64,000 nt of DNA from Symbiodinium sp. CCMP2592 (taxonomy: Eukaryota > Sar > Dinophyceae > Suessiales > Symbiodiniaceae). The notes under the pieces were generated by a model, which saw nothing but the letters and a program-made list of their open reading frames with translations, was not told the DNA's origin and made no database searches. Within the stretch, counting starts at the first letter, position 1, and each line of letters opens with the position of its first letter. The position numbers and the translations under genes were made by a program. Below are positions 36,096 to 61,936 of this stretch, piece after piece. Where the stretch lies: contig CAJNDT010000941.1 of the NCBI GenBank assembly GCA_905221615.1, positions 1-64,000 of the forward strand, in the 5' to 3' direction.

Positions 36096-36119
36096 AGTAT
36101 GCGTGTCGCTATGTACATT

Positions 36120-37756: not shown

Positions 37757-37996
37757 ATGGCTGTTGAGGCGACTGACTGCCTCCCCGGCACGGTCGGTCA
37801 CGGGATCAGCCTCCGACCGGTCTGGGTTGCTGCAAGCGCTCCCTGTGACTCACCTGACTCGATGCGTGCGGGCCACTCGCGCTCCAGATCGCGCCCTCCT
37901 GACCGGCTTCCGCGAGCGCTGCGGCCTGAGGTGGAACGCTGGTGGCCTGGAGCGGAGCTGCGCCTTCGGCTCCTCCAACATGGAGGGGGTGGTAAC
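37757..37996 (+). pseudogene. Interrupted host gene, 5' piece (dinoflagellate repeat-family protein)
   Basis: In-frame translation ends ...SRSRSRPPDRLPRALRPEV, ERWWPGAELRLRLLQHGGGGN. The last codons GGT GGT AAC belong to the 10-bp duplication. With the insertion at 37997-60029 and one duplication copy removed, the frame continues directly into HGLLRSFRQLAQNRGVRSYM, DYFNIFLEHLDGLR at 60040. I recognise this as a multicopy dinoflagellate family of unknown function (SRSRSP-type linker, WW...LR.RLL.HGGG.N, FFN.FLEHLD). The upstream start is not established; ATG 37757 is the first in frame. Confidence 0.7.
37987..37996. repeat. 10-bp target-site duplication (left) of element F
   Basis: GGGTGGTAAC, immediately before the element end GAGATTAACCC. 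An identical 10 bp follows the other end at 60030-60039. Confidence 0.85.
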
Positions 37997-38364
37997 GAGA
38001 TTAACCCGCTTTACAACCAGAATCCTTACTTTATAACCAGAATCCCCACTTTACAACCACAGACACTGTTTTCCGTGTGAGAATCCCCTCTTTACAACTG
38101 CCGATCGTGAGAACGCCCACTTTGCAACCCGTCTACCCATGATTAAGACTTATTGGGATTTCATGATTTCTTTACAACAAACCTACCTAGATTCCTAATA
38201 GTTTGTTGGTTCTTTGACCCCCTAAAGTGTTTTACGTGGCCTTCATCCGGCCGTGGCCCCAAACTACTAAGATCTCGAACATCCCTAAAATTGCTTCGTC
38301 GCATGATATCTTTGATCTTTGTCGTCTGTGGGTGCTTCTGTGCGCCTGGCTGGAGGCAAAGCAG
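37997..38364 (+). repeat. A module of element F (inverted copy at 59341-59706)
   Basis: Begins GAGATTAACCCGCTTTACAA and carries several copies of CTTTACAACCAGAATCCCCA. The reverse complement at 59341-59706 is nearly identical over its whole length, ending in CTGGCTGGAGGCA-AGC. Confidence 0.92.
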
Positions 38365-38374
38365 TAGTTGAGGG

Positions 38375-38550
38375 CTGCTCCGGATTATATGCACCCGAAC
38401 CCTTGTTTAGAATATGCACCCGAACCCTACGCCTTAAACCCGAAGCCCTAAACCCTCGTAAAGCCACTAGGTTTAGAATATGCGCCCGAACCCTACGCCT
38501 TAAACCCTAAGCCCTAAACCCTCGTAGAGCCACTAGGTCTAGAACCCTAA
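38375..38550. repeat. TTTAGGG-like interstitial repeats with a ~66-bp duplication
   Basis: CCCTAAACCC, CCCTAAGCCC and CCGAACCC variants. A unit beginning TTTAGAATATGC(A/G)CCCGAAC is present twice (about 38405 and 38471). It replaces a different sequence found at this place in copy R. Confidence 0.8.
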
Positions 38551-38614
38551 CCACGCTATCCTTGCACACTATACCCGGCCCGCAAATGCTGCAGAACCCG
38601 TATGGGAACCCCGT

Positions 38615-39035
38615 ACTTGTATGGCGTAAAACCGTAAATACAACATCAAATGGAATAAAATGTTCGGGTTCATGTATTGGCTTTAATATAAATATACATA
38701 TATATATATATATATACTAAGAAAATGCATACCTGCGCTCTGGTGAGAAAAGAGTCCGTCTGTGAAGCGTGGTGCTGTGGAGTTCGAGGGTAGGAATTTG
38801 GTTACATGTTACTGCGCTTTGCACTCTAGCCTTGCCTGTGGTGGGTCGGTGGGTTGGGGTTCGAAAAGGTCATGTTTTATGTATGCTTTCCTCAATACAA
38901 GCACACAAAAAAGGAAAACCATTTTTTGAAAGTACTTGTATGGCGTAAAACCGTAAATACAACATCAAATGTAGTAAAATGTTTGGGTTCATGTATTGGC
39001 TTTAATATAGATATAAATATAAATATAAATATATA

Positions 39036-39079
<44 letters not shown>

Positions 39080-39280
39080 TATATAAATATATAAATATAT
39101 ATAAACTAAAAAATGCATACCTGCGCTCTGGTGAGAAAAGAATCCGTTCTAAAATGGTCCGAGTTTGCCTGCAGGGAGTGAGTTGGATACAGCTTGACGG
39201 CCGCAAGTGCGTAAAGTGCAAACCACTATGCAACAACACGCTCGCTGAGGTGAGCATCTAAACAGTATCATCGATACCAA

Positions 39281-39312
<32 letters not shown>
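38615..39312 (+). repeat. Satellite modules C-D-C-E with (TA)n tracts in element F
   Basis: Module C starts ACTTGTATGGCGTAAAACCG (38615 and 38934) and runs into TTTAATATAAATATA and (TA)n. Module D starts TGCATACCTGCGCTCTGGTG (38728), and the same start opens E at 39116. E ends ATACCAAACCC before the last (TA)n. Reverse copies: C at 48058-48128 and 59033-59107, D at 48139-48330, E at 47790-48020. Confidence 0.9.
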
Positions 39313-39315
<3 letters not shown>

Positions 39316-39394
39316 TCAGGCGTCTGGTGTTTCCCAGCCCCCCCCCCCCCCCCCCCCCCCCCATGGTATGGTCGGATAGGGTGGGGGGGGGGGG
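39313..39394. repeat. Left terminal inverted repeat with poly-C and poly-G runs
   Basis: Includes C25 (39338-39362) and G12 (39383-39394). It matches the inverted right end at 47467-47510 plus 59707-59740. Confidence 0.75.
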
Positions 39395-40287
39395 CCAGAT
39401 GCGCGCACCGGGGGGTTTAACACACAGCAAGGCGCAGGAATATGCAACACCCAATGTAGACGCTGTTTTCAAGGAACCAGACATCAGTGCCACGCCACAA
39501 GCTCGTCAATCGCCACTCAGACGCAGTGAAATGGTAGAAAACCTATTCGATTCTGCATTTCCCTGGAACACCGGGCCAAAGCACCAAAACGCGGCCCTTA
39601 GGAAGCGGAACGGCTTTTTTGGAGGCAAAACCGCAGGCAGTAGCTGCCAAAACAAGAAGCCTCTGCAGTTTAGGCCTCCAAAAGAGCCGAGGGCCTTTGA
39701 AAGGGTTTTACCAGGGTTCTGGTAGGGCCGGGGGCCACATGCGCGCACCGGGGGGTTTAACACACATCAGGGTGCAGAAATATGCATCACCCCATGTAGA
39801 CACTGTTTTCAAGGAACCACACATCAGTGCCGGAATTACACATCACACCAACCGTAATCCCGAACGCTGGATTTTGTTGGTCGTTGCCAACTTAACGAAA
39901 CCTAACGAAACCTCGCGGACGCCAGTGATCTCGGCACAGACTGCTGCCATTTGGATGCGCGTTTTAGTGGCGAATCACGAAGGTGACGCTGGTTTCTGTT
40001 GTTGCACTACTGCAGCTGCATCTATCACATCTTACAACAACGTCACCAAACATACACCACAAGCTCGTCAAACGCCACTTAGACGCAGTGAAATGGTAGA
40101 AAACCTATTCGATTCTGTATTTCCCTGGAAAACCGGGCAAGCACCAAAACGCGGCCCTTAGGAAGCGGAACGGTTTTTTGGAGGCAAAACCTCAGGCATT
40201 AGCTGCCAAAACAAGAAGCCTCTGCAGTTTAGGCCTCCAAAAGAGCCGAGGGCCTTTGAAAGGGTTTACCAGGGTTCTGGTGGGGCC
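39393..40287 (+). repeat. Tandem duplication differing by a ~225-bp internal segment
   Basis: Unit 1 is 39393-39726 and unit 2 is 39733-40287. Both start GCGCGCACCGGGGGGTTTAA and end AAGGGTTT(T)ACCAGGGTTC. Unit 2 has ~225 bp (39832-40056) between CATCAGTGCC and CCACAAGCTCGTC that unit 1 lacks. No gene is recognised in either. Confidence 0.9.
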
Positions 40288-40919
40288 ATCACGGCTGATG
40301 TTTGGATGTATGCCAAGCCGGGCTCCGAAATGCTTAGCCGCAAAGTGGTCGCCGAAAGATGTGTATTTCCGCAACGCGATGCGAATTAAACCCTCCCTTC
40401 GTACCGCGTTTTAATCTTGTTTCGATTTCCCGCACCCCACATGTTTCCCACATAAGCAGCCAGACGCCTGTACCGTGTTTCTATTTTTTCTATTTATAAA
40501 TCCTCAAGGCTTCAGAAGCACATGGGGCAGGACACGGGGCAGGAAACGGTATGAAAGTACGAAGCCCTCAACCCCTAACCCTGACTTGAATACTAGACAT
40601 CAGCAGACGTGTAAACCGTAAAGTAAACCCCTGTCGGGGCTATACTACTTGACCCCAAATTGTTAGACCCTCACCAGACCCAAAACCCTTCACTGCACCG
40701 GTTCTTCTTGGGGCCTCATGATTGGTTCTGTACTGTTGGGTAAGTTGTCGGGGGTCGGAGGTTCTAGGATGTTCTAGGCTTCGCCTGAGATTCCTGGACT
40801 CGTCTTATGCCTCAAATCGCCTCTGAACCCTAATTATCAAGTTTCCAGATTCCTATATCCTTCGAATTTAAACTATGAGAAAACCCAACGCCCAAAGCCC
40901 CAACAGATACGCCTTTTGG
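40288..40919. other. Non-coding, with scattered CCCTAA-type motifs
   Basis: CCCTAACCC at ~40571 and similar short motifs; nothing else seen. Confidence 0.4.
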
Positions 40920-41821
40920 CTAGGATCGCTTCAAGCTCGCCTTACGGATGCCTGCAGCCTTGGCTTTGGCCTTTGTTTTGGCCTTTGCCTTGGCTTTTGC
41001 CTTTGCTTTGGCCTTGGCTTTTGGACCAGGCTTGATGGGAAGCGAGGTTCCCGGCTCTTTCAGAGCGAGTAGATCAAAGTGCACATTCCCACGCAGCAGT
41101 GCAATTGGACGGCCTCCAGCAACCCCGTCGTTGTTCTCAGTCCACACAAGCTCCAAGCCGTCGCGCCAAGAGTAGACTTCGACAGGGATGCCAGACATCC
41201 GCACAAACGCCGCCAGATTGCAGAAGGTGCCGTACGTGCGTGGTTTCATGGCGTGCGCAAAGTATGTGCCCCAGTTGAACCCTCCTTGGTGTTCTTGGGT
41301 CCACAGTGGATCGTCCATCATCTCCTTGGGTGCTCTGTCATTTCGCCGGACCGCCAAAAACCACATAATTATCCCGAAACGCTAAACCCCAAACCGTTGT
41401 CCGACATGGCATCCGAAGAAGCAAGCTCTAAATCACACAGAGGCTCCACGCATACGGCCTCTGTCACCTGGCGCAGGCGTCCGGGCGTCAGGGAGTCCAG
41501 GTACTTCTGCATGCAGCAGCAGACCTGGCTACGCAGGCTCTGCGCGCCAGCGTCGTCGTCCTGTCCAAAGGCCATTTTAGGTGCCTTATAGTTAACTTCG
41601 CTCTCTGAGACACGGTGTCTGTCCTGCAAAGCCTCGGCTGCGATGCCACCACGCAGCTGCATGCCCATGTGCAAGGCCCTGTAAAGGCAGGCGCCATCCG
41701 CCATGACCTTGATGCGAATCCAAGGGTCGAAGTCGGGTGCCCGTCGACGCTTTGCGGAATCAGGCGTGCGCAGACGAGGTGGTGTAGGCACTGTGTCATC
41801 CGCCTCCAGCTGGATTGGCAT
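40920..41821 (-). pseudogene. OTU-family cysteine protease, split by a frame break
   Basis: Two adjacent minus-strand ORFs make up one OTU domain. The first (41821-41369) has IKVMADGACLYRALHMGM with Asp42 and catalytic Cys45. The second (41366-40920) has WGTYFAHAMKPRTYGTFCNL then AAFVRMSGIPVEVY and the catalytic His in GNVHFDLL (His96). They are in different frames. The join contains GGTTTGGGGTTTAGCG, a TTTAGGG-like insertion or short intron, so the gene is either broken or spliced here. The C-terminus is an (Ala-Lys)n tail, probably nucleic-acid binding. OTU enzymes cut ubiquitin chains or polyproteins. Its place downstream of the integrase suggests either polyprotein cleavage or countering host ubiquitination; neither is shown. 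Confidence 0.75.
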
Positions 41822-42233
41822 GAGCTTGAGACTGGCTTCGTGTCTGACACACTCGTGACCTGACAGGGCAACAGGCAGCGATGTGCCTCAAATAATTACA
41901 AATAAGGGCCTTAGTAATTAGAATAGGGTTTTGGGCTTCTTTATAGTATGGTTGTAATAGGGAACCCTAAGGAATAGTATAGGTATGTGAATCGTGCTAG
42001 CTGGTCTTACGCTGCAGGGGCAAGCACAGCACCCCAACTGTTGTTGCTTCGCGTGACCGACCGCAGGCGTGCAGCTTGCAGAGCTACACCGAAGTACAGC
42101 CGTGCACACTTGGCGCGCCTAGTAGCTAGAACAAGGCACGTGAGCCAAAACGTTTCGTTTTTAACAAAACATACAAATTACAACAGCAGGCAAGACTGAA
42201 CTAGAGCTGGCAGAGGCAAGAGGCAGGTGGCAC
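41822..42233. other. Spacer between OTU and integrase ORFs
   Basis: No gene seen. Contains AGGGTTTTGGGC and similar TTTAGGG-like motifs. Confidence 0.4.
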
Positions 42234-43441
42234 TCACAGGTAGGCTTCTTTAGTAAATACAGGAGACGTCGTAGTGAGAAGAAGCGAAAAACATGATGGC
42301 GAAATCCAAGCACCGGTCTTGTTGTCTTTGAGGCTCACGAAACCCTGCGAGACTGAGAGGACTGTGAACTCTCGCACTTCACCGCCCAGGGTCTCGAACT
42401 TGCCACGCCCGGTCTTCGTCGTGTATTGGCTGTTGCGTGCGATGACACGGTCGCCCGACACCAGCGGCATAGTGCTGCGATGCGTCCTTTTCCTGGCATA
42501 GCGCAGGTGCCGCTTCATGGCCTCACGCATCTTCTTGTTGTTGAGGGCGCCAGCAATTGGGGCCACGGCCTTGTGAAGCGCCTCAGCTGCCTGCTGCACG
42601 TACTCTGGCGTGAGACCAGCCTGGCTCTCATCGAGGAAACGTAGCCAGTCGGCCTCGGAAATGGGTTTGGCCTCCCCATGGATGATGCGCGAAGCTGTAG
42701 ATTCTTCCAACGACTTTCGGTGGGTCGCAGTGAGCGCCACAAGCTTTCTGGGCTGACGCCATACCGCTGATGGATGCGGGAGTTTAGAGCCACCGTCGCC
42801 GCGAGGAGGCGGCTCCTCTGTCCGGCGTGCGCCAGGTCTAGCAGCCGGTTGTGGCATTCCACCAGCCCGTTTGCCTGGGGGCGTCCTGGCGGGATCGTTC
42901 GGGGACGGACTCCCAGTGTGGCCTCGATGGCAGTCGTGAGCAGGTTGCGGAACTGGCCACCATTGTCAGTCCAGCATATAGCTGGGAGTTCGTTGTCCGC
43001 ATACAACTTGAGCATCAGCTCCTGGACCTTGACGGCCGTGGCTTCACCGAAATCCAGAGCCCACGTCCAAGTCTTCCCGCTGGTGAAATCGAGCGCGAGA
43101 AGCATAGACCACTTCGGCTCATCATGCGGGGTCACTGTTTTTAGGTCCCAGCCGATGACATCACCTGCGTGTAAGGGCGTCGGCAAGTGTCGGAGGTCTG
43201 CCTTTCCCATCTCACGCGTGCTGTTGGAGCGGCAGAGCTCACAGCGTCGAACTATCCAATCTGCATCGAGGGCAATGTTGTTCCAAGTTTTTCCTGTCTG
43301 ATGTAAAAAGCCCTATACACCCTGTCGAATCGAAAAGTTTTACGAGAGCAAAGAAGCAGATTCTAGCTGCAACTTGGGACCCACTTCTTTCATGGCTCGG
43401 ATGACCGCGTGACGTCCGCCGGTGTGGCTACAATCTTCATG
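42234..43441 (-). pseudogene. DDE integrase (retroviral/Polinton rve type), frameshifted
   Basis: Reading the minus strand: an HEDCSHTGGRHAVIRAMKEV segment (~43440-43390), then after a break DWIVRRCELCRSNS, together resemble the HH-CC zinc-binding domain. The core (43210-42800) reads GDVIGWDLKT (Asp22), WTDNGGQF (Asp82) and RPQANGLVECHNRL (Glu118). Asp82 and Glu118 are separated by 35 residues, the exact D,D-35-E spacing. After YGVSPESL the sense shifts to the 42857-42234 frame (SLEESTASRIIHGEAKPISE, VQQAAEALHKAVAP, then a C-terminal GRGKFETLGGEVREFTVLSV small beta domain). Integrases join element ends to target DNA. Catalytic residues are intact, but at least two frame breaks make this copy inactive. 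Confidence 0.85.
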
Positions 43442-43558
43442 TGCAGCCTGCAGCAACGCAACCTGGACAGGCATGGGCCCCGGGTAGCATCCGAGGATTT
43501 TTAGGTTTAAGGGTTTAGGCTTGAAGGCTTAGGGTTAGGAATATAGAGCCAAGCACAG

Positions 43559-44248
43559 TCAAGCCGCTTTTTCCTTGGCGGGTATGCCCCCATGATCAGG
43601 GCCAAGCATACGAAGGTGGAAGTTCTTGCGCCCCTGCTGAGCAAGGACAGCTCTGTAAGATTGCAGGTTCTCACTGGGCAGGGCCTCGAGCGGCCCCTGC
43701 AAGATCCACTTGGCAACCTCGCCTCTATCAGGCGCAGCCTCGTCTTGGTCAGGCACATCGCCTTCGTCCGGATTCGCAGCGGCTAAGCTTTGCACCGATC
43801 TTTGCACCAGCTGATCGTGGGTCTCCTTGAGGCGTTTCTGTGAGCAGGCTGAGCACTGACTCCCATTGGCTTTACTTCGCTGCCATTGGGAAGTACTGAA
43901 ATCAGCCTTGGGTTTCACCACGCCGCAAGTAGCACAAGTCTTGGTCAGTTTGCACTGCTCCAGGGCAGCTGTCTCAACGCATTTTTGGCACTTGGACTTC
44001 ACGCCCGCGGCCCACTGCGTTTTGGTAAAGCCAGCCCGAGGAGTGTCTACATTGCAGCCAGCGCAGACTTTACTGTTCTTGGCACGCTTCTGCAGATTGG
44101 CATCCACTGGCTTGCACTCGAGACAACGGGAGACGGAGTCTTTCTTGGCCGATTCCGTCCTGGAAAACAAGGCCTGATGGGCCTGATCCTTCCGCTGCTT
44201 GCACTCCGAGCAGATCCTGCTAGATACCCGCTCTGCCAGCTGAGGCAA
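43559..44248 (-). CDS. Cys-rich protein with three Stc1/LIM-like zinc repeats
   Basis: 229 aa, uninterrupted. Three Cys4-type modules: ICSECKQRKDQ...CLECK, VCAGCNVDTPRAGFTKTQW then CQKCVE, and TCATCGVVKPKADFSTSQW then CSACSQ. The pattern CxxC...K..F...QW...CxxC is like the Stc1 zinc-binding domain, known from a fission-yeast RNAi/chromatin adaptor. The C-terminus (ILQGPLEALPSENLQSYRAV, then RKNFHLRMLG) is also found inverted at 44570-44695. It lies just upstream of the integrase on the same strand. Zinc-mediated binding of nucleic acid or chromatin is inferred. Start at 44248 is the first Met; the preceding sequence is repetitive. Confidence 0.6.
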   Translation of the reverse strand: MPQLAERVSSRICSECKQRKDQAHQALFSRTESAKKDSVSRCLECKPVDANLQKRAKNSKVCAGCNVDTPRAGFTKTQWAAGVKSKCQKCVETAALEQCKLTKTCATCGVVKPKADFSTSQWQRSKANGSQCSACSQKRLKETHDQLVQRSVQSLAAANPDEGDVPDQDEAAPDRGEVAKWILQGPLEALPSENLQSYRAVLAQQGRKNFHLRMLGPDHGGIPAKEKAA

Positions 44249-44394
44249 GCGACGGCCAATCTCCTATCGTGCCGGGAGGGACTCAGCATGATACGATGGG
44301 CTTGTAGTATAGTACAGTATCGTGTCGGGATAGGACAGTATAGGATAGTAGATGATATGATATGGTCTTGATGTATTCGCAATGATTTGCCTGT

Positions 44395-44500
44395 ATCTTC
44401 CAACCAAGTCAAATGACTGTTTGAAGTCAAACGAGCTTGGTCCGATGCAGTTAACTGGGAAAGGCAAATCTGACGAAGTTGATCCGATGCAGGTTTGACG
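44395..44500. repeat. Partial unit of the 157-bp repeat
   Basis: TTGGTCCGATGCAGTTAACT then GGCAAATCTGACGAAGTTGA, matching the array at 45376-45725. Confidence 0.75.
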
Positions 44501-44569
44501 TTGATATGGACTAATCGTTGCCCATCTATGCCAATCTGCAAGAACGTGCCAAGAACAGTAAAGTCTGCC

Positions 44570-44990
44570 GCCCTGCCCAGTGAGAGCCTGCAATCTTACA
44601 GAGATGAAAATGGGTTGAAGAACTTCCGCCTTCGTGTGCTTGGCGTTATGGCCCTGATCATGAGGGCCATACCCGCCCAGGAAAACGCGGCTTGACTGTG
44701 CTTGGCTCTATATTCCTAACCCTAAGCCTTCAAGCCTAAACCCTTTAGCCTTCAAGCCTAAATCCTCGCATGTTACCCGGGTCCATAGACGTCCGACACT
44801 TGCCGACACCCTTACCGCCGGTGATGTAATCTGGCTGGGCAAACCTTCGAAAGTCGTTGGAAGAATCTACAGCTTCGTGGCATCATCCATGGGGAGGCCA
44901 AGCGATGCGTGAGGCTATGAAGCGGCACCTGGGCTATGCCAGGAAGACGACACATCGCAGTGCTATGCCGTTGGTGTCGGGCGACCGTGT
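44570..44990 (+). pseudogene. Inverted, internally deleted copy of the integrase/Stc1-like locus
   Basis: On the plus strand, 44570-44695 gives SESLQSYRDENGLKNFRLRV, the C-terminus of the zinc protein. Then come the same AT-rich/CCCTAA spacer (TTCCTAACCCTAAGCCTTCA), the integrase start (VRHLPTPLPPV-like), and a jump to KSLEESTAS and MREAMKRHLGYARKTTHRSA then MPLVSGDRVIA of the integrase C-terminus. It mirrors 43690-42400 with the catalytic core deleted. It gives a ~1.2-kb arm-loop-arm inverted structure together with the minus-strand genes. Confidence 0.8.
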
Positions 44991-44999
44991 CATCGCATG

Positions 45000-45375
45000 C
45001 GAGCAGACCTTGATGCCTGGTCTAATTCGTAGGTGTCGCTATGTGAGCTATGAGCGCGATGTCATAGTCTACCATGTACATAGAGCAAGGCGCCGTTTTG
45101 CGAACCTTGTCTCATCATTTGTGTGAAAAACAAAGGAATCCACTCAACTCTCGGTCACAAAGCCGTGAAAAGCGGAGGAATCCACTTAACTCTCGATCAC
45201 AAAGCCCTGGGCAACCAATCGTAGATCGAAGCAGTGCAAAGCAAGCAAGCAGGACGATCGGAAATTGCTACCGTTGGCATAACAAACTATGGCCGTATTA
45301 GCTAACAAGCTAGTGGCCTGTGTAGGACCAAAAGGATTCGAGCCATTCCCCTTGCACAGACAACTACAAGCGATA
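45000..45375. other. Non-coding stretch with a short duplication
   Basis: AGGAATCCAC(T)(C/T)AACTCTCG-(A/G)TCACAAAGCC occurs twice (45134 and 45177). No gene seen. Confidence 0.5.
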
Positions 45376-45725
45376 GGCAAATCTGACGAAGTTGATCCGA
45401 TGCAGCTTCCACAATGATATGGACTAACTGTTGCGAATCTGTGCGAATTCGCATGTTTTGAACATATCTTCCAGTCATATCGGAAGAATGTTTCAATTCT
45501 GACGAAGTTGGTCCGATGCAGTTAATTGAGATAGGCAAATCTGACGAAGTTGATCCGATGCAGTTTCCACAATGATATGTACTAATTGTTGCGAATCTGT
45601 ACGAATTCGCATGTGTTGAATATATCTTCCAAGCATGTCGGATGGATGTTTCAATTCTGACGAAGTTGGTCCGATGCAGTTAACTGAGATAGGCAAATCT
45701 GACGAAGTTCATCCGATGCAAACAA
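45376..45725. repeat. 157-bp tandem repeat, ~2.2 copies
   Basis: Units start GGCAAATCTGACGAAGTT at 45377 and 45534, with a third start at 45691. Each contains TTGCGAATCTGT(G/A)CGAATTCG and ends TTGGTCCGATGCAGTTAA. GACGAAGTTG(G/A)TCCGATGCAG occurs twice per unit, so the unit is itself built from a short repeat. Confidence 0.9.
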
Positions 45726-45787
45726 TACTCTAGTATAGTAAGATATAGTATAGTACAACATAGGACATAGGACAGTATAGTAGAGCA

Positions 45788-47760: not shown

Positions 47761-47789
47761 ATATATATAGATATATATATATATACATA

Positions 47790-53310: not shown

Positions 53311-53597
53311 GGCTTTAGGTCTTCCATCATAGTGTTTGTTTTTGTTGCCGGCTTCTGTTCCTGGGGTTGTGCTGTGGTTGGGTTCTGGCTCGGGTCAGTT
53401 GCTTCGGTTTGTTTTTTGGCTCGGCGGTTTGGTGGTTGTGTGTTTTCCTCGCCCCGCCTTAGGCCCGGACTAGGCCCCAGCACAAGTCCTGTCCGGTCCT
53501 AGGCGCTTTTTTTTTTGGAGGGCCAGGCCCCGACCAGGCCCCATACCCGCCCTCTGTCCCACGGGTCCTGGTCGGGTTCTGGCCCACACAGATCAGC

Positions 53598-53730
53598 CTT
53601 CATGAAACATCATATGAATTCATATGTGTTCATGGGTGCTCATGAACATTCATAAGTGTTCATGGGTGATCATGAATGCTCATGAAGCTTCATGGGATAT
53701 CATAAAACTTCATGTGATATCACATGAAAA
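53598..53730. repeat. TTCATG/CATGAA short repeats
   Basis: TTCATGG, TCATGAA and CATATGA motifs recur every ~10-13 bp. CATGAA and TTCATG are mutually complementary, so hairpins are possible. Function unknown. Confidence 0.8.
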
Positions 53731-53806
53731 ACCCTTGCATTCCGGATGTCTTCGTTTTTTTCTCGCCCTCCTTCGGAAGAGTCTGTGCAGCACCACCGGC
53801 CATCGG

Positions 53807-54738
53807 CTACTCCAAGTCGTCTTCTTCTTCACGGGGCTCACGGGACTTGCGACGAATCCTTCTTGGAATGTGCCCACGACCCTCGGCTGCATCTCCTTCG
53901 CTTGTGCCACTTGCTACAGTCTCAGGCCCGGCGGCTGCAGCACTCGTTCCATCTGTGCCCGCATCTGTAGAAGACCCGGCGGCTGCAGCATTCGTTCCAT
54001 CTGTGCTCGCATCTGTCGAAGGCCCGGCGGCTGCAGCATTGCTTCCATCTGTGGCCGCATCTGTCGAAGACCCGGCGGCTGCAGCATTGGTTCCATCTGT
54101 GGCCGCCATAGACCCATGTGATGCAGCAGCATCGGCTGCAGCATTGCTTCCATCTCCGGCCGCCATAGACCCATCTGTCGAAGAGCCGGCAGCCGCAGAG
54201 CTTGGGCGGTCTGTCGAAGACCCGGCAGCTGCATCTGCTTGGTTCTGAACCTGCCAGGTGTTGCTTTGAGGATGGTCGTAGGATTAAGCAATTAAGCTGT
54301 TCCGGTTCGGGTTGTTGTTGGGGGCACCCACGGGCAAGTCGGGCTATTTACAACACAAGCCTCCCTCTGCAATTGAAACAACCGCTTGCCAGCTCGACCA
54401 AGTCGGTTGACATCTTCTATGGTTTCAGCGGCGGATACAAGACTTCGGAACTCATCTCTGATCCATGCATCAATGTCGACCCTCGCTTCACCCGTCACCG
54501 GCCATTCGGGAAGCGAGTGCAAAAATCTATTGAAGGAATCGGACGAGCTGAGAGTGGCCTCGGCCACTGCAGGTGCTGCTGTCACCATGGACACCGCCTT
54601 TGGCTCCGCTGCCTGGGCTAAACTGGTAAACGATATGTTTGGGTTTGGGGTCCAGGGTTTCGAGGTGCTGCCGTGTTTCAGCAAGTGCCGGTGGTGCAGG
54701 TGCCGGTGGTGCAAGGCCCGCTTTTTGCCTGGGGTCAC
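53807..54738 (-). CDS. 16-residue repeat protein (uncertain frame)
   Basis: A 48-bp unit (53933-54225), about six copies, is open in several frames on both strands. On the minus strand one frame (54166-53807) reads TNAAAAGSSTDAATDG repeats and ends RRIRRKSREPREEEDDLE. Another (54738-53914, one TAA at 54292) reads a non-repetitive SSDSFNRFLHSLPEWPVTGE, RVDIDAWIRDEFRSLVSAAE, IEDVNRLGRAGKRLFQLQRE followed by QPPGLRQMRAQMERML repeats. The second has the more protein-like N-terminal segment. The plus strand also has a 174-codon ORF. Other genes of the transposon are on the minus strand, so I favour minus, but coding is not certain. Confidence 0.35.
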
Positions 54739-54739
54739 C

Positions 54740-55144
54740 GAACCCTTATGCTATCAAACCCCTAATAACTCTTTCAAAAGTTACTCCCAGGCCTTCGGTG
54801 GAGGAGCTGGCGGTGCAGCAGACCCTTTCGGCTTCGGCTCCTTGGGCTCGTTTCTTAAAAGGGTTGGGTTTAGGGTTTAGGGTTAAGGGCGGGATTCTTT
54901 AACTAAGTGCTGCAAAGCTTCGGCTTGGGATGGCGGCCTCAGGGGAATAGCCTTGATCATCAGAGGCCTGTCCCCCCTGCTTGTCGGCCTGGGTGTCGCT
55001 TCTGCCGGCGGTGAGGCGGGAGCCAGCAGTGCCGACACACCCTCCTGGGCTGTGGAAGAGTCAGGTCTTCTATTTCTGCTGGTTTCTAGGAGCTTTAGGG
55101 TTCCGGGGCTTCAGGGTTGAAGGGTTAAAAAAACTGGCCTAAGC
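54740..55144. other. Spacer with TTTAGGG-like motifs
   Basis: GGTTGGGTTTAGGGTTTAGG at ~54859 and AGGGTTCCGGGGCTTCAGGG at ~55095. No gene recognised. Confidence 0.5.
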
Positions 55145-55309
55145 TCATATGAGCCAAGATTCCCGCGACTGAAACATATTCCTGCGGCAGATGGGGCATT
55201 TTCCAGCCGCACGAACCCGCAAATTTCGAAGGCAGGAGATGCAGAAGGGGCCGTGTGCACACAAGCTAAAGGACATAGGAGCTGGGTCCGTCTGCAAGCA
55301 GACGATGCA
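55145..55309 (-). CDS. RING-HC zinc finger (C-terminal end of a transposon gene)
   Basis: The minus-strand frame reads CIVCLQTDPAPMSFSLCAHG, then PFCISCLRNLRVRAAGKCPI then CRRNMFQSRESWLI and TGA at 55147-55145. Spacing C-x2-C-x12-C-x-H-x3-C-x2-C-x11-C-x2-C meets the RING consensus for the C3HC4 type. Upstream in the same frame is GNRSHGSCYRCSPGGTSDAG, open to a TGA near 55400. The neighbouring frame carries an Ala/Thr-rich stretch (ATTESPASATAAENTAA), so the full protein may join this RING to the low-complexity region through a frameshift or splice. RING proteins act as ubiquitin E3 ligases. The longer ORF in this place (55449-55111) is in another frame and hides the motif. Confidence 0.7.
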   Translation of the reverse strand, partial: CIVCLQTDPAPMSFSLCAHGPFCISCLRNLRVRAAGKCPICRRNMFQSRESWLI

Positions 55310-55887
55310 CCTGCTGCCTGCATCACTTGTACCGCCGGGGCTGCAGCGATAGCAGCTGCCGTGACTTCTGTTGCCGCTGCTGTGTTCTCAGCTGCTGTCG
55401 CAGATGCCGGGCTTTCTGTTGTAGCTGCGGTGTCCTCAGCTGCTGTCACAGCTGCCGTGGCTACTGTTGCAGGTGCTGTCGCTGCTGCGGTGTTCTGAGG
55501 TGGCCCATCGGTGTTCGCAGCTGGCCCATCGGTGCTCGCAGCTGGCCCATCGGTGCTCGCAGCTGTGTTGTCTGCATTTCCATCACCTGATCCACCAGCT
55601 GTGCTTGTCCAATTGGCCTGGTTCCAATGGCCTCTCCCGCCGCCCGAACTCCACGAGCCCCACGAGTTCCACGATCCACGGCCCCGGTGTCGGTTTCCAG
55701 AGTTCCTGGTCCAGTTGCTTCCACTCCCGCCACCTCTGTTTCCGGAGCCACTGTTCCAGCTACTTGCACTCCAAGAGCCTGCACAGGGTTTCGGTTTCGG
55801 GTTTTAGGGGTTTAGCATTGAGGGTTTCAGGTTTAGTGGTTTAGTATTCAGGGTTTCAGGGTTTAGGGTTAAGGGGTTTAGAGCAAT
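55310..55887. other. Low-complexity region between RING and Gly-rich gene
   Basis: A 24-bp repeat (GGTGCTCGCAGCTGGCCCATC, 3-4 copies, ~55497-55563), Trp/Gly/Asn/Arg-rich minus-strand frames, and GGGTTTAGGGTTAAGGGGTT at ~55859. It may be coding for the N-terminal part of the RING protein. Confidence 0.4.
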
Positions 55888-56445
55888 TCAGCCGTTGCCT
55901 TGGTTCCAGCCACCACTGCCGGATCCGGATCCATGGCTTGCCCAAGCACTGCCGCCTCCACTGCCGCCGCTGCCAGACCCAGAGCTACCGTAGTTCTGCT
56001 GGCCTGCCCAAGCACCGCCACTGCCGCCGCTGCCAGACCCAGAGCTCCCGTAGTTCTGCTGGCCTGCCCAAGCACCGCCACTGCCGCCGCTGCCAGACCC
56101 AGCGCTCCCACCGTAGTTGTGCTGGCCTGCCCAAGCACCGCCACTACCGCCGCCCCAGCTACCACTGCCACTGCCACGGCCGCTGCCAGACCCAGAGCTT
56201 CCACCGTAGCTGTGCTGGCCTGCCCAAGCACCAAAGCCACCGCCATTGCCAGCATCGTTCAGCTGGCCTTGTTGGTCAAGGCGGCGGAGAAGGTTCTTTG
56301 CGACCCGTAGTCGCTTCCGCTTTCTCGAACTGGACGTCGACGAGGAGCTGGAGCTGGATGTATCCAGCAAGGCGATTGCCTCTTTCAACTTTCTAAATTT
56401 CCTCTTCCTCGCCCCACTTCTTTTGTCCTTCTTCTTTCGCCCCAT
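55888..56445 (-). CDS. Basic protein with 20-residue Gly/Ser repeats (GGAWAGQQNYGSSGSGSG)
   Basis: 185 aa, complete. The N-terminus is MGRKKKDKRSGARKRKFRKL, strongly basic and nuclear-signal-like, then an S-rich stretch, RKRKRLRVAKNLLRRLDQQG, and four or five 60-bp (20-aa) repeats built on GGAWAGQQNYGSSGSGSG. Repeats of Gly/Ser with single Trp/Tyr/Gln/Asn resemble the prion-like low-complexity tails of RNA-binding proteins, able to phase-separate. It is part of the minus-strand gene set of the transposon. The repeat could expand or contract by slippage. Function unknown. Confidence 0.55.
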   Translation of the reverse strand: MGRKKKDKRSGARKRKFRKLKEAIALLDTSSSSSSSTSSSRKRKRLRVAKNLLRRLDQQGQLNDAGNGGGFGAWAGQHSYGGSSGSGSGRGSGSGSWGGGSGGAWAGQHNYGGSAGSGSGGSGGAWAGQQNYGSSGSGSGGSGGAWAGQQNYGSSGSGSGGSGGGSAWASHGSGSGSGGWNQGNG

Positions 56446-57087
56446 GGGGCGATCGTGAGGTTATGCCCTAAGGGCAACCTCAAAAACACGAAGAATGGCC
56501 TTCCTAAGGTTTGAGCAATACATTTTGTGGAATATTGATTGCTCTTAAGCTTCTTGAGCACATGCGACTCCAGCAGAATTGACTTGAAGTCTTTGGCTGG
56601 CTCTGGTTCCGGGGTTGGCTTCAGGTCTCGCGTCTGGTCTCGGCCCAGCAGAGGCCCTGTCTCAGGTCCTCTGCCGGTCCGAGACCGATGTCTCGGCCCA
56701 ACCTAGTCCCTGGGGCTTGGTACTAGGTCGGTTCGAGACATGTCTTTCCCACCCCTCGCTCAGCACCCACCCACTCCCCAAAAAACCGCCAAGGATGTCT
56801 TGCAAGATCGCTACGAAGCAATTCCTAATATCAGTTAAGGGACTTTTCAAGCAGAACCCCTTGGAGAAAAAAAGCGCCAAAAACGTCTTTCACAATCGAT
56901 GCAAACAATTGCAGACCTATAAGGGACACAACTCCGAGGAAACCTTTGGGATACTTAGCCGATCGACCTAGGCTTCGGCTTGGACTTGCAGCTGGCAGCA
57001 GCGAAATTTTTTTGTGCTCTTCAGCTTCGGCCAGAAGCTCCAGTCAAAAGTGGTGCTGAGCACCGAGGATCGGCATCTTCTGCTGGA
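56446..57087. other. Spacer without recognised gene
   Basis: Mixed sequence with GGTCTCG(G/C)-type short repeats at 56620-56700. Nothing else seen. Confidence 0.4.
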
Positions 57088-58131
57088 TCACTCCGAAGCG
57101 ATCTCTTCGTCCCGAAGCTTCACAGCAAAGGCTTTGGTAATCTTACCCTTGGTCTTCGTCTTCCGCAATTTTTGCATGACAGCCTGGAGCACAGCATGAA
57201 ACTTCAAGCTCTGGGTCGTTGTGCAAGCCACGACGAGCTGACCATGCTCATCCAAAATGTAGCTCTTTTCCTTGAAGGGGCCTTTGAGAGACAAGAGGGC
57301 GACATTCAGGACTGTCTCCAAGCTCAAGGGCGTCTTCTTCAAGCTTCCAGCACTGGGCTTCTTCATGACCTTAGGCTTGCTAGCAGCAGGTTCCTCAGGC
57401 ACGGATTTCCCCGCTGGTCGCTTCATGCTTGCGGCTTTGGCTGCCAAGGCTTCGACATCGCCATCAGAATCGTCCTCTTCTTCTTCGTCTCCTTCTCCCG
57501 ACTTCCCGCCCTTGAGGAAGGACCACAGAGGAAGACCGTCGGAATCTTGAGAAAGAGGAATGTCCTGGTACTTCTTCAAGCCATAGATGTCGCTCTCCGG
57601 GCCTGCAGATCCTGCAGCTTCTGAGGGCTCTGCACCAGCAGCTTGGCGAACACGAGTACGAAGCTCCTTCAACTGGGCTAGCTTGTCACCCAGGCCGCAC
57701 AGTGCTTCTTCGCACTTTCGCCACTCCTTCTCGCTTGAGCCTCCCAAACAAAGTCGCCGAACATGGTTTAAGACGACGATGGTCCTGTCAGCCACATCCC
57801 CTGCCACAGTACCCAAAGGTCCGGACTTCGGCCTGCAAGCGGGGACGCTGGTGAACACGTTCATGAAAACCTCCTTGAGCTGGGAGTAAGACAAGTTGGC
57901 AGTCGGGCAAGCACTTAGAATGGCCATGAGGAAAGGCACCAACTTCGCCAGGGACTGGAACCTGATTGCACACGAACTCCAAGCACTTTCGTACTCGTGG
58001 AAGTTGAATGCATTGCCCGCCCCGACCTCATCCACATGATTCTTCAAGGCATCAGCAAGCCGTTCTGTCTCCACCCGAGCTTTGGGTGAATTGCGAGCAC
58101 CACCCCTCGGCACAGCAGCCTTCTTCACCAT
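57088..58131 (-). CDS. 347-aa protein with MKRPAGK/MKKPSAG motifs (transposon cargo)
   Basis: Complete ORF. The N-terminal half is helical: ETERLADALKNHVDEVGAGN, FHEYESAWSSCAIRFQSLAK, LVPFLMAILSACPTANLSYS, TIVVLNHVRRLCLGGSSEKE. Then an acidic linker (GEGDEEEEDDSDGDVEAL). The C-terminal third has MKRPAGKSVPEE, KVMKKPSAGSLKKT and a small domain (LETVLNVALLSLKGPFKEKS, DEHGQLVVACTTTQSLKFHA, MQKLRKTKTKGKITKAFAVK). The M(K/R)(K/R)P(A/S)x(K/G) motifs are common in dinoflagellate proteins of unknown role. No catalytic residues visible. Same strand as the transposase-like gene, ~200 bp upstream spacer to the next gene. Function unknown. Confidence 0.6.
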   Translation of the reverse strand: MVKKAAVPRGGARNSPKARVETERLADALKNHVDEVGAGNAFNFHEYESAWSSCAIRFQSLAKLVPFLMAILSACPTANLSYSQLKEVFMNVFTSVPACRPKSGPLGTVAGDVADRTIVVLNHVRRLCLGGSSEKEWRKCEEALCGLGDKLAQLKELRTRVRQAAGAEPSEAAGSAGPESDIYGLKKYQDIPLSQDSDGLPLWSFLKGGKSGEGDEEEEDDSDGDVEALAAKAASMKRPAGKSVPEEPAASKPKVMKKPSAGSLKKTPLSLETVLNVALLSLKGPFKEKSYILDEHGQLVVACTTTQSLKFHAVLQAVMQKLRKTKTKGKITKAFAVKLRDEEIASE

Positions 58132-58342
58132 GGCCCTGCAGCTAGAAAAAAACCTGGCGACCTAGAAGCTGCTGAAAATTAATGCTACGGCATGGAAAAC
58201 TTATGCAAAATCAGAGCTGGGCTGGTCACTTTGACATCACTTGCACCCGATTGGCAATTGGAGGCAGACAGTTCCTTAATCCGCTCTTTTGTGCTTCTGC
58301 TTCACTGGTTGGAAGAGTAAACCTGCCGAGCTGTACACTGAC

Positions 58343-58606
58343 CTAGTAGGTGCGGTTCAGCCGGTTCAGCAACCTCCGGTCGTCCACTTCAAGGTACCAC
58401 TCAGCTGCACAGGTTTCGCACCAGTGATTTTCATGAGCAATGCACAGACGGATGCAGGGCTTCCCATGCTTGGCGCATTGATCGCTGCATCGCACACCGA
58501 CTTCAGTGCTCTCTGGAGTCAGCTGCCTGCTCGACGGAGTCTGCACATCCATGTAGCTCTCATCACCGCCACGGGAAGCAGAGCAGCAGCAGCACACGGA
58601 GCCCAT
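58343..58606 (-). CDS. Small zinc-binding protein with lipidation-like N-terminus
   Basis: ATG at 58606 gives 87 aa starting MGSVCCCCSASRGGDESYMD. The longer in-frame Met at 58861 would add a stretch without protein character, so I prefer the shorter start. Gly2 followed by a Cys cluster suits N-myristoylation plus palmitoylation. The second half, CSDQCAKHGKPCIRLCIAHE, NHWCETCAAEWY, has C-x3-C-x2-H-x3-C-x3-C-x2-H-x4-C-x2-C ligands for two zinc ions. I have seen similar HGxxCxRxC...GHxxxC patterns in dinoflagellate transposon ORFs. It is the first minus-strand gene inside the right end of the transposon. Confidence 0.55.
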   Translation of the reverse strand: MGSVCCCCSASRGGDESYMDVQTPSSRQLTPESTEVGVRCSDQCAKHGKPCIRLCIAHENHWCETCAAEWYLEVDDRRLLNRLNRTY

Positions 58607-58814
58607 GCTTGCAAAGAAGGAAGGCGGCCCGGGCGATATACGTGAAATCTGCTGCAAAGATTTAACAGATGCGGCAAACATGAATGGAATTAGCCCATGC
58701 TCACAGCAGCTGCAGATGATGATGCAGACTATGCGGGACGACAGTAAGCTTGCCCTCGGCCCCATGCCAGTCCCCAATGCAGGTTCTGGCAGGGTCCGAG
58801 GGCCTGGGTTCTCA

Positions 58815-58972
58815 ACCCAAAAATCAATATCTATTTCAATAAAGAGAAGCATATGTTTCAATATGATGCATGATACAAATTCAATACAACATTGATATGA
58901 TCACAGGCCTATTATTGTTTCTTGCGCAAAATCAATATAGGACATTGATTTTGCGCTCAAAACAATATGTGG
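58815..58972 (-). repeat. Right subterminal TCAATAT/TATTGA motifs
   Basis: At least nine CAATAT, TCAATA or TATTGA motifs, plus the inverted pair GCGCAAAATCAATATAGGAC / ACATTGATTTTGCGC (58924-58956). Mirrors 48397-48560. Confidence 0.65.
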
Positions 58973-59003
58973 ATTGTCTTTTTTCAATAACCGAGTCTCT
59001 GGG
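58973..59003 (-). repeat. Right terminal inverted repeat of the 10.6-kb transposon
   Basis: Reads on the minus strand CCCAGAGACTCGGTTATTGA then AAAAAGACAAT. Followed outside by (TA)n. Confidence 0.85.
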
Positions 59004-59340
59004 ATATATATATATATATATGTATATTTATATTAAAGCCAGTACATGAACCCGAACATTTTATTACATTTGATGTTGTATTTACGGTTTTACGCCATAC
59101 AAGTACTTTCAAGAATTGATGTATTTTTTGTGTGCTTGTATTGGGGAAATCATACAGATAATATGACATTTAGAAACCCAACCCACCAACCCAGCACAGG
59201 CAAGGTTAGGAGTGCGGAGCACATAATAAAATACAACCAAATTCCTAAACCAGCCCCAAAAAACAAAATGGTGGAAAAGAAACGCTTTTTTTAACATTGC
59301 GGGAAAGACGAGACACAAAGATAACAATAAAAATAATGCG
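59004..59340 (-). repeat. Modules C and partial D of element R after the transposon
   Basis: (TA)nGTATATTTATATTAAAGCC, module C (59033-59107), then a diverged D-like stretch. It contains a 60-bp sequence (GTTATCTTTGTGTCTCGTC... inverted) not found in F. Confidence 0.85.
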
Positions 59341-59706
59341 GCTCTGCCTCCAGCCAGGCGCACAGAAGCACCCACAGACGACAAAGATCAAAGATATGAT
59401 GCGACGAAGCAATTTTATCGACGTTCGAGATCTTAGTAGTTTGGGGCCACGGTCGGATGAAGGCCACGTGAAACACTTTTGGGGGGTCAAAGAACCAACA
59501 AATTATTAGGAATCTAGGTAGGTTTGTTGTAAAAACTCATGAAATCCCAATAAGTCTTAATCATGGGTAGACGGGTTGCAAAGTGGGCGTTCTCACGATC
59601 GGCAGTTGTAAAGTGGGGATTCTCACACGGAAAGCAGTGTCTGTGGTTGTAAAGTGGGGATTCTGGTTGTAAAGTAGGGATTCTGGTTGTAAAGCGGGTT
59701 AATCTC
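59341..59706 (-). repeat. A module of element R
   Basis: Reverse complement of 37997-38364; ends GGGTTAATCTC. Confidence 0.92.
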
Positions 59707-59739
59707 CCCCTGGGGGGGGGGGGGCCGCGGAGCGCGTGA

Positions 59740-59740
<1 letters not shown>
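59707..59740. repeat. Outer part of the right inverted repeat of the 8.2-kb element
   Basis: CCCCT, G13, CCGCGGAGCGCGTGACCA, then (TA)n. Inverted it matches TGGTCA(G/C)GCG of the left end. Confidence 0.75.
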
Positions 59741-59782
<42 letters not shown>

Positions 59783-60029
59783 CACACACATATCTATCGT
59801 GGTTTCGGGTTAAGAACGCCCGCGTTGCAACCAACATCACTTTCCAACCTGCATGGCTGCCGTAAAGGATGATGCTAGAGATTCTAGGCTTTGACGTTAT
59901 CAGTTAATAGGGTTGTTAAGAAGCTTTCCCAACCGGTTGCAAAGTGGGGATTCCGGAAAGGCTCATGGGTTGTAAAGTGGGGGTTCTGGTTGTAAAGTGG
60001 GGATTCTGGTTGTAAAGCGGGGTACACGC
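59741..60029 (+). repeat. (TA)n and B module of element F
   Basis: (TA)n, a short (CA)n, then the B module 59774-60029, ending GGGGTACACGC directly before GGGTGGTAAC. Confidence 0.92.
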
Positions 60030-60039
60030 GGGTGGTAAC
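60030..60039. repeat. 10-bp target-site duplication (right) of element F
   Basis: GGGTGGTAAC, identical to 37987-37996. Confidence 0.85.
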
Positions 60040-61936
60040 CACGGCTTGCTGCGAAGCTTTAGACAGTTGGCTCAAAACCGCGGGGTGCGAAGCTACATGG
60101 ATTATTTCAACATCTTTCTCGAGCACCTCGACGGCCTCAGGAACAACCCCATCGACATGAGGACCACGCTGCCGACCTTGCGTTTGCCCTCTGGACCGAG
60201 GACCTCCTCTGGCAGGACTGGGCCTCCATGCATCTGCCCCCTCCGGGTACACCCTTGGCATCTGTCGGAATTTTCGCGGCTGTGACGGAGCAGAGTGGGA
60301 GAGGACACGTACACGACTCTGCAGCGACGTCCAGGGTCGGAGCTGGCTGTATCATCTGACGGGTCCTCGTCAGGGGTGGCACACTCCGAGCCGAGTGCGA
60401 GCCGTACCTTGGGCGAGGACACTGATTCCTCTGAGACCGAGTCGGACGATGCTAACTCTTTGGTGGAAAGGTCTCGGTCGCAACCCCGCAAAACGTCCCG
60501 CCGGCCCTCACAAAGCCTTGTAACAGGAGGTGGTGACCGAACCACGGCACGGGCGCCTACCGTACCGCGCTGTCGCTGGTGGACCAACAAATGGAAGACC
60601 CAGCAGCTATGCAACGGGAGGCGACTGCGGAAGTGGAAACACACTTGGAACAACTGGTGCAGGTAGGGCAGACTGCCCTGGCTGGGGGAACTTGCCCACA
60701 GACTCCGCTGCCGACTCCGGCTACCCCGCGCTGGAAGCATGATGGATCACGGGGTGCGGTGGATATCTGCACGCAGTATGCCAGTCGCTACCTTGAAGAA
60801 CCGGGGCGTGCTTTCCACCCGGGATGGGAGGAGACAGTCCGTCTTCTTGAGCTTGGCATTTACGAGTCGGCGGCGGCCTGTGTCCGCAACTTCCACCGCT
60901 ACCGTGCCCAACGCGCAGCTGGACTCCAGATTGCGCACCCGTCCCTGCCGAACACGGACGCTGAGGAGAGGAGAGGCGCGGTGCAGCTGCCTGCGGATAC
61001 GGACGCCTCCAGTGTCATGCAAGGGCTCAGATCCGCCGAGACAAATGCCCGACCGGGAGCCCTGCTACCGGTGGCTCATGGCCTTGACCACCGCCTGGCC
61101 ACACTAGAGACACCCCTTCGAGTCGGCCGCTCCCTTTATCTTCTACACCAACTTCGACGACACTACGGCGCAGATGTGGACCGAGTGAACTTTCCTGCTG
61201 TGGAAACCCTCGAGGCGGCGCTTGCTGCGCACGCCTGCGCGGATGGCGGGGACGACACTGTCATGGAGCTCGATAATGTGGACACGTCCTTCTTGGCCTC
61301 TTGGTGGGACCAGGTTCGAGCGGTTCTCCCGCCCCGGTGCTGCAGGTGTGGTACCTGTCAACTCCACCCTGACGGTGTCGGAGAGCAACGAGACGGCGAC
61401 GAGGTCCCATGCAGCCACTGAGGAGTGGCTGGAGAGGCAGGAGCTCTTGGCCTGCGAGGACGATGCTCGTCGGTTTGATGAGCATGTGGAGGAGAAGGCT
61501 CGGGCACCACCGAGAACAACTGGCTGCGCAACAGGCTGCCTCTGCGGCGCAGGCATGGGACGACTGGGCCATGTACTCGAGCATGCACGAAGCAGATGAT
61601 GCACGCAAACGTAGAAGGGTGACCGTCGCCGTGGCTTCGCAGCACGAGCCTGGGCCACATATGCGTCACTTCACGGTGCCGGAACAAGGGTGGACACAGG
61701 TCCAGTTCTGGATCGAAGGGGAGGGCAGTGCGTCATCGATGCCTACACCTCCGCCTGGAGCTGGAGCACTTGGTAGTGGAGGTCAGTGGCCTGAAGGAGC
61801 CCTGCTGCAACCCGAACCTGTGGCTCTGGAGGACTCCTTAGCTTCACATGTGGAACGACAGGAGGGAGATCTGCAGTCGAATGCCGGTGCCGATGACTCT
61901 AGAGGAACGACTGGGGCTCGGAAGGACGATGTGTAG
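60040..61936 (+). pseudogene. Interrupted host gene, 3' piece (dinoflagellate repeat-family protein)
   Basis: It continues in frame from 37996: HGLLRSFRQLAQNRGVRSYM, DYFNIFLEHLDGLRNNPIDM. The frame has one TGA (60283), then continues through an acidic Ser-rich linker to ~60640. Next the sense moves to 60579-61421 (MEDPAAMQREATAEVETHLE, QYASRYLEEPGRAFHPGWEE, AAACVRNFHRYRAQ, VGRSLYLLHQLRRHYG), then to 61222-61599 (TEEWLERQELLACEDDARRF), then to 61409-61936 (REQLAAQQAASAAQAWDDWA, KRRRVTVAVASQHEPGPHMR, VPEQGWTQVQFWIE). At least three frame changes and a stop mark a pseudogene. The family is repeated in dinoflagellate genomes; its AWDDWA...RRRVTV end is typical. Function unknown. Confidence 0.65.

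What the first reader, a model, noticed from the sequence alone, without database searches (positions are those of the whole stretch)
37757..60285. Five-level nest of insertions in a host reading frame
A host frame ends ...LLQHGGGGN at 37996 and resumes HGLLRSFRQLA at 60040, with GGGTGGTAAC on both sides of the gap. Between them: element F (1.6 kb), split by an 8.2-kb TIR element, itself carrying reverse element R (1.56 kb), itself split by a 10.6-kb DNA transposon. Each boundary is defined by sequence: matched inverted ends, the same 10 bp on both sides, or an unbroken paralogous junction. Relative order of insertions can therefore be read directly, which is rare in one 22-kb stretch.
Basis: seen in the sequence. 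Interest (0 to 1): 0.88.

Follow-up and report, generated by a model that had tools for sequence, protein, structure and literature searches.

The report
Four-deep transposon nest in algal genome
Four mobile DNA elements sit one inside another in an alga's genome, the inner three each in or beside a simple-repeat tract carried by the element around it, and one of them is an unusual jumping gene that also carries a primer-making enzyme.

Summary
The nest is real. Four DNA elements lie one inside another: F, then X, then R, then T, 22.0 kb in dinoflagellate DNA (left flank single copy). Copies elsewhere in the same 1.1-Gb genome show the outer elements whole: F-family copies run unbroken through the X and T sites, and a second X has no R. 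Most F-family copies examined repeat the 10-bp target duplication. The "host reading frame" is not supported: the joined 182-codon frame is within chance. Reading the insertion order directly is mostly but not fully justified, because an inner element could have travelled as cargo.

Two things go beyond the finding. First, targets interlock: the F/R family tends to enter G- or C-runs and carries (TA)n tracts; X enters ATATAT and carries a poly-C run in its terminal repeat; T sits in a (TA)n tract. Second, X (8.2 kb; second copy 8,313 bp) encodes a RepB-type primase, Cys-rich repeats, a DD35E integrase and an OTU-like protease. Integrase plus OTU is the Ginger1 layout; the primase, GGTCA ends and ATATAT target are not. 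T's other copies could not be examined because that genome search stayed unanswered.

The parts
37147..37996 (.). outermost (host) DNA, left of the nest; 37700-37996 is single copy in the assembly
   Evidence: 37700-37996 searched in the 1.098-Gb genome: 1 match, itself
37987..37996 (+). 10-bp target-site duplication GGGTGGTAAC, left copy
37997..39313 (+). element F, left part (TIR, 20-bp subterminal repeats, (TA)n tracts)
39314..47510 (.). element X, main part; genes on the minus strand; terminal repeat starts GGTCAGGCG and contains C25
   Evidence: X2 copy in L062
40923..41887 (-). X: OTU-like protease, two overlapping frames read as two exons (Cys in DGACLYRAL, His in GNVHFDLL, by eye)
42237..43489 (-). 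X: integrase (H2C2 piece, DD35E core), frame broken in this copy
   Evidence: X2 integrase frame open
43562..44263 (-). X: repeated Cys-rich region
44528..45000 (+). inverted, internally deleted copy of part of the X gene region, inside X
46134..46679 (-). X: RepB-type primase
   Evidence: Pfam RepB_primase E 2.2e-13; profile of 22 sequences hits solved Replication protein B at E 2.1e-28
47511..48365 (-). element R, right part (same family as F)
48366..59003 (.). element T, 10,638 bp, TIR CCCAGAG..., standing in a (TA)n tract of R
48696..50689 (-). T: transposase-like gene in two overlapping frames; relative P0022 has it as one 617-aa protein
59004..59706 (-). element R, left part
59707..59741 (.). 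element X, outer 35 bp of the right end (last bases GCGTGACC), cut off from the rest of X by R; its first 5 bases (CCCCT) may be filler from R's insertion
59742..60029 (+). element F, right part
60030..60039 (+). 10-bp target-site duplication GGGTGGTAAC, right copy
60040..60285 (.). outermost (host) DNA, right of the nest (copy number in the genome not tested)
   Evidence: genome search unanswered

Best explanation
A nest made by four separate DNA-transposon insertions, most likely in the order F, X, R, T. F, a non-autonomous TIR element of about 1.6 kb, entered host DNA with a 10-bp duplication. X, an 8.2-kb TIR element with an integrase, an OTU-like protease and a primase, entered one of F's (TA)n tracts. 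R, a second member of F's family, entered the poly-C run inside X's own terminal repeat. T, a 10.6-kb TIR element with a transposase-like gene, entered a (TA)n tract of R. The choice of sites is not accidental: the F/R family favours G- or C-runs and carries (TA)n tracts, X carries a C-run and enters AT-alternating sites, so each element supplies a target for the next. Shown: the nest; the boundaries of F, X and R by other copies; the F-family duplication and target bias. Inferred: X's and T's target preferences (two sites and one site), the order of events, and that the integrase and the T gene are the enzymes that did it.
For: Self-alignment and F/R alignment. 10-bp repeat beside F only. F family: 41 matches listed, two of which are in the window besides F's own left end (R's left end, and a weak one at F's right end); only 40 of 124 first-look candidates were scored. 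Of 30 fetched copies (L002-L031; L002 is the window's F), 27 have a right end in the locus: 17 of 27 have a 10-bp repeat directly at both ends with 0-1 mismatch (14 exact, 3 of those 14 pure homopolymer), 3 are offset by one base, 4 have 3-6 filler bases, 3 have none (L030 and L031 look like one insertion on two contigs). 16 of 30 left flanks (20 bases) are at least 70% one base, G or C, against 3 of 3,199 window 20-mers. Five compared copies are unbroken at the X site (F halves meet). At the T site L027 and L030 join the R halves, and L003, L004 and L029 align to F straight through the same place. X2 at C5020: same two ends, ATATAT on both sides, an unbroken run of 21 G where R sits in the window. 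X's terminal repeat resumes on the inner side of R (22 matches, 2 gaps of 2 bases; 3 of 5,000 random window stretches score as high). All 8 (TA) runs of 14 bp or more in the window lie in F or R, and all 4 G/C runs of 12 or more in X or at R's edge.
Against: The six inner joints lie in or beside simple repeats, where assemblers err most; no reads were available. R has no clean 10-bp duplication (flanks CCCCCAGGGG and C10 on R's strand), though 4 of 27 other copies show 3-6 filler bases. The duplication made by X inside F cannot be told from the TA tract. T's ends rest on this one copy: its genome search did not complete. 14 of 30 F-family flanks miss the 70% G-or-C threshold, the window's own F among them (9 of 20). 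3 of 27 copies show no duplication.
Confidence: 0.9

Rival explanations
1. Assembly joins: unrelated pieces were stitched together at (TA)n and G/C runs, and the nest does not exist in the cell.
For: All six inner joints lie in or beside simple repeats.
Against: The halves of F and of R fit together in the correct orientation with no overlap or loss outside simple repeats, apart from about 16 bases missing in F, as judged against unbroken copies; X and T end at matched inverted ends on both sides; X2 shows the same X ends at another place. Random misjoins would hardly give complementary halves for F, R and X's terminal repeat alike.
Confidence: 0.05
2. Cargo movement: R with T already inside it (or X with R and T inside) jumped as a unit, so fewer separate insertions happened at this place and the order differs from outside-in.
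For: Both outer ends of R are intact, and its family looks non-autonomous, so a long passenger may not forbid movement (inference).
Against: X2 exists without R, and R splits X's terminal repeat, which should hinder a later jump of X. 27 of 30 fetched F-family copies have both ends within a 3.4-kb locus and so hold no T, but R was not used as a query and only 40 of 124 candidates were scored.
Confidence: 0.15
3. The outermost layer is a host protein gene split by F.
For: The duplication rejoins in frame to an open frame of 182 codons.
Against: 113 of 500 resamples reach that length; the frame's codon scores (-0.053 left, -0.050 right) are those of random stretches (median -0.041), and two other frames are open too. 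No homologue search was run with it.
Confidence: 0.08

Closest known systems
Ginger1 DNA transposons (Bao, Kapitonov and Jurka 2010, PMC2836005; abstract and passages seen)
   Same: For X: gypsy-type integrase with H2C2 and DD35E followed by an OTU-like protease in one protein; TIRs; introns in many members there and, as read from frame breaks, here.
   Different: X ends GGTCA, not TGTNR; target ATATAT, not CCGG/CCGT; no GPY/F motif seen by eye; longer (8.2-8.3 kb against 2.6-7 kb there); an added primase and Cys-rich repeats ('primase' does not occur in that paper).
Ginger2/Tdd DNA transposons (same paper, passages)
   Same: AT-rich target (RTATAY) and integrase-type transposase.
   Different: TGTNR ends not met; no OTU or primase mentioned for them in the passages that I saw.
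Polinton/Maverick and polinton-like viruses (PMC6431247, PMC12721341, PMC12220804; passages seen)
   Same: rve-type integrase in polintons; TIRs; replication enzymes carried by the element; some polinton-like viruses carry archaeo-eukaryotic primases fused to helicases.
   Different: No PolB, capsid or packaging gene recognised in X and little room for them (8.3 kb); its primase is RepB-type, with no helicase recognised in the 7 frames scanned.
Nested transposons of large genomes (for example maize; recalled, not from a call)
   Same: Elements inside elements, ordered by nesting.
   Different: Here all four are DNA elements and the target tract of each inner layer is carried by the layer outside it.

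Membership tests
Ginger1 | integrase-type DDE transposase with H2C2 zinc finger | tested here: met
   rve E 1.2e-6 on the window frame (29.1 bits, below Pfam's cut-off 32.6); H2C2 E 2.9e-4 and 3.4e-4 on relatives P0033 and P0031, also below cut-off; D-35-E spacing by eye
Ginger1 | OTU or Ulp1 protease at the C-terminus of the same protein | tested here: met
   P0029, P0031 and P0032 align over 99-100% of the integrase+OTU query. The OTU name itself is weak: Pfam 18.0 against 23.3 bits in P0029; best solved matches a viral polymerase chain (E 0.0013; that it is an OTU domain is recalled), OTUD5 (0.089), OTUD3 (0.23)
Ginger1 | termini TGTNR | tested here: not met
   both X copies start GGTCA
Ginger1 | 4-bp CCGG or CCGT target duplication | tested here: not met
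   ATATAT on both sides of X2
Ginger1 | GPY/F motif | tested here: inconclusive
   not seen by eye in alignment A3; no profile test
Ginger2/Tdd | AT-rich RTATAY target | tested here: met
   X2 in ATATAT, X in (TA)n; two sites only
Ginger2/Tdd | termini TGTNR | tested here: not met
   GGTCA ends
Polinton/Maverick | protein-primed PolB, ATPase and capsid genes | tested here: not met
   none among the 7 X frames scanned with Pfam; the gene-sense frames of 120 aa or more in X2 are listed, and the long ones are primase, Cys-rich region, integrase and OTU; the opposite strand of X2 was not listed
non-autonomous TIR element (F and R) | conserved ends, fixed-length duplication, many copies, no transposase gene | tested here: met
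   no frame of 150 aa or more is listed wholly inside the F or R parts of the window
Mutator-like (F and R) | Mutator-type transposase of the autonomous partner | not tested
   the 8-11-bp duplication of that superfamily is recalled; no autonomous partner was sought
known DDE superfamily (T) | Pfam or solved-structure match of the transposase-like protein | tested here: not met
   best Pfam E 0.1 over 7 of 7 members, no PDB match at E up to 10, no NCBIfam match for P0022, model pLDDT 51

The most novel reading that the evidence does not exclude
X stands for an undescribed group of eukaryotic DNA transposons whose gene joins a RepB-type primase, Cys-rich repeats, a DD35E integrase and an OTU protease. 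The primase would start copying of the element, so X would move by copying and not only by cut and paste. X and elements of the F and T kinds share interlocking targets (X's C-run receives F's family; the TA tracts of F's family receive X and T), so nests grow by themselves in this genome.
Probability: 0.35. Interest if true: 0.75.

Novelty: new variant of a known kind. Interest (0 to 1): 0.5.

Why it matters
It gives a checked example of why nested elements form: each inner layer sits in a simple repeat that the layer outside it carries. That can be tested by counting across the genome. X also joins a replication primase to a Ginger-type transposase within one TIR element. I did not find that combination in print (listings of searches, in an open-licence library only; one search listed 15 of 1,453). 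It bears on how integrase transposons and self-copying elements such as polintons are related.

Tried and rejected
Host gene split by F: rejected as unsupported. LTR-retrotransposon origin of X: rejected, since TIRs enclose the genes in two copies and no reverse transcriptase was found among the 7 X frames scanned. Fold prediction of the T relative (P0022, pLDDT 50.7) and of an X relative (P0031, pLDDT 46.5) was too weak to search with, so no fold search was made. IMG/VR: P0022 gave no relative, an F-end pattern no match, profile A3 no relative. Spliced copy as origin of the inverted mini-copy in X: rejected, because the missing pieces include open coding sequence.
Full report
What is there. 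The window is bases 1-64000 of contig C941 of a 1.098-Gb genome in 5,383 contigs. Between 37,997 and 60,029 stand four DNA elements, one inside another.

The layers. F is 37997-39313 plus 59742-60029 (1,605 bp). X is 39314-47510 plus 59707-59741 (8,232 bp; the first five of those last 35 bases may be filler). R, reversed, is 59706-59004 plus 48365-47511 (1,558 bp). T is 48366-59003 (10,638 bp). F and R are copies of one family, 96.7% identical over 1,116 columns in five segments outside long simple repeats; each also has internal stretches that the other lacks. Each has inverted ends with 20-bp subterminal repeats. Each is unbroken where the other is split, except that the X site in F is a longer TA tract and lacks about 16 bases that R has there.

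Support from other copies. The left end of F has 41 matches listed in the genome; only 40 of 124 first-look candidates were scored, so this is a lower bound. Thirty loci with 1.5 kb on each side were fetched; one is the window's own F. In 27 of the 30 the right end lies in the locus. A 10-bp repeat stands directly at both ends in 17 of 27 (14 exact, 3 with one mismatch), one base off in 3, with 3-6 extra bases in 4, and none was found in 3. Three of the 14 exact ones are homopolymers. Clear examples are CCCCTTCCAC, GGGGAGTGAC, AATCCTAAAC and CGGTAGACTG. L030 and L031 appear to be one insertion on two contigs. In 16 of 30 the 20 bases before the element are at least 70% one base, G or C, against 3 of 3,199 non-overlapping window 20-mers; 14 of 30 are not. 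Five copies, chosen for length, were compared with the halves (L003, L004, L027, L029, L030): in all five the F halves meet at the X site; at the T site L027 and L030 join the R halves and the other three align to F straight through.

X has a sister. A search with X's left end (40 of 94 candidates scored) found one other copy that begins at the same base, on C5020, 97% identical. The fetched stretch shows an 8,313-bp X with flanks ...CCATATAT and ATATATTACC..., hence a repeat of up to six bases, ATATAT. The two X copies are 98.4%, 99.5% and 96.2% identical in three long blocks. X2 has no R: its run of 21 G is unbroken where the window has 12 G, R, CCCCT and 13 G. The window's X lies in a TA tract of F. 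So R's entry into X's terminal repeat is supported by an R-free copy and by the terminal repeat resuming on the inner side of R.

What X encodes. The recognised genes are on the minus strand: a RepB-type primase (Pfam E 2.2e-13; a profile of 22 sequences, 21 relatives and the window's own, matches solved Replication protein B at E 2.1e-28), a Cys-rich repeat region, an integrase, and an OTU-like domain. A query joining the window's integrase and OTU pieces found single predicted proteins that cover 99-100% of it: P0029 (81% identity), P0031, P0032; P0034 covers 95% (12 proteins at E up to 0.001; only the 7,998 candidates sharing most words were scored). P0034 from Effrenium voratum begins with the end of the primase (59% over 46 aa to the window primase, E 2e-13; 50% over 103 aa to P0005) and goes on through integrase and part of OTU, so primase and integrase are one predicted protein there. 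The other relatives show no primase, but a gene model may start late. In X2 the primase, Cys-rich and integrase frames are open and in the same phase, the two OTU frames are open, and the primase frame includes a C-terminal part that the window copy lacks. Whether X2 is fully intact was not established. The window's X has a broken integrase frame. The OTU assignment rests on sub-threshold Pfam scores, weak profile matches to solved OTU domains, and Cys and His motifs seen by eye.

What T encodes. A transposase-like protein, 87% identical to P0022 (617 aa, 45 member sequences), in two overlapping frames in this copy. No usable Pfam or NCBIfam match and no PDB match was found. That it is T's transposase is inferred from its place inside matched ends.

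How it works, most likely. The families have interlocking targets. In the window all eight (TA) runs of 14 bp or more lie in F or R, and all four G/C runs of 12 or more lie in X or at R's edge. X and T sit in (TA)n tracts; R sits in X's C-run. Each of the three inner elements used a site carried by the one outside it. For T this is one observation only, for X two sites.

What does not hold. The outer 'host frame' is within chance. The left flank is single copy; the right flank was not tested. No allele without the nest was seen, since the left flank occurs once.

Limits. All six inner joints lie in or beside simple repeats and no reads were at hand. R's duplication is not clean. T's copies could not be searched. 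Order is most simply F, X, R, T, but cargo movement of R with T is open.

Literature. Ginger1 has integrase plus OTU or Ulp1, TGTNR ends and CCGG targets; Ginger2 targets RTATAY (PMC2836005, abstract and passages). X shares layout with the first and an AT target with the second, but not the ends. 'Primase' does not occur in that paper. Passages of PMC6431247, PMC12721341 and PMC12220804 mention primases in viruses and polinton-like viruses, often fused to helicases; none of the passages seen has one joined to an integrase with OTU. The listings of searches held no paper that I recognised as describing such an element; subscription journals are not covered, and one search listed 15 of 1,453.

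Noticed in passing
32534-37132: A LINE on the minus strand (endonuclease and reverse transcriptase frame of 1,183 aa, poly-A tail read as poly-T at 32534) with a 14-bp duplication TGATCATAAGACCT at 32520 and 37133, 850 bp from the nest.
   Followed up: partly
44528-45000: Inside X, an inverted copy of pieces of the X gene with several stretches missing; a transcript through both could fold back on itself. The second X copy carries at least part of it.
   Followed up: partly
L005, L006, L014, L026 and window 59707-59711: 4 of 27 F-family insertions, and R, carry 3-6 extra bases at the left end; in most of these they include bases complementary to the target run (G after C-runs, CCC after a G-rich site). 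Origin unexplained.
   Followed up: partly
39390-40287: In X's left subterminal region two segments recur in the order A B A' (222-bp spacer) B'; the same arrangement is in the second X copy.
   Followed up: no
541-1404: Copia-type reverse transcriptase fragment (RVT_2, E 1.1e-17).
   Followed up: no
2714-6649: 1,311-aa open frame with a weak, sub-threshold B-box match, followed by another long open frame at 7116-9074.
   Followed up: no
9969-13438 and 14770-15634: A long array of diverged direct repeats, and a CA-rich microsatellite that stays open in several frames.
   Followed up: no
38405-38544: A 66-bp repeat with telomere-like AACCCTAAACCCT motifs inside F, expanded in L016.
   Followed up: no
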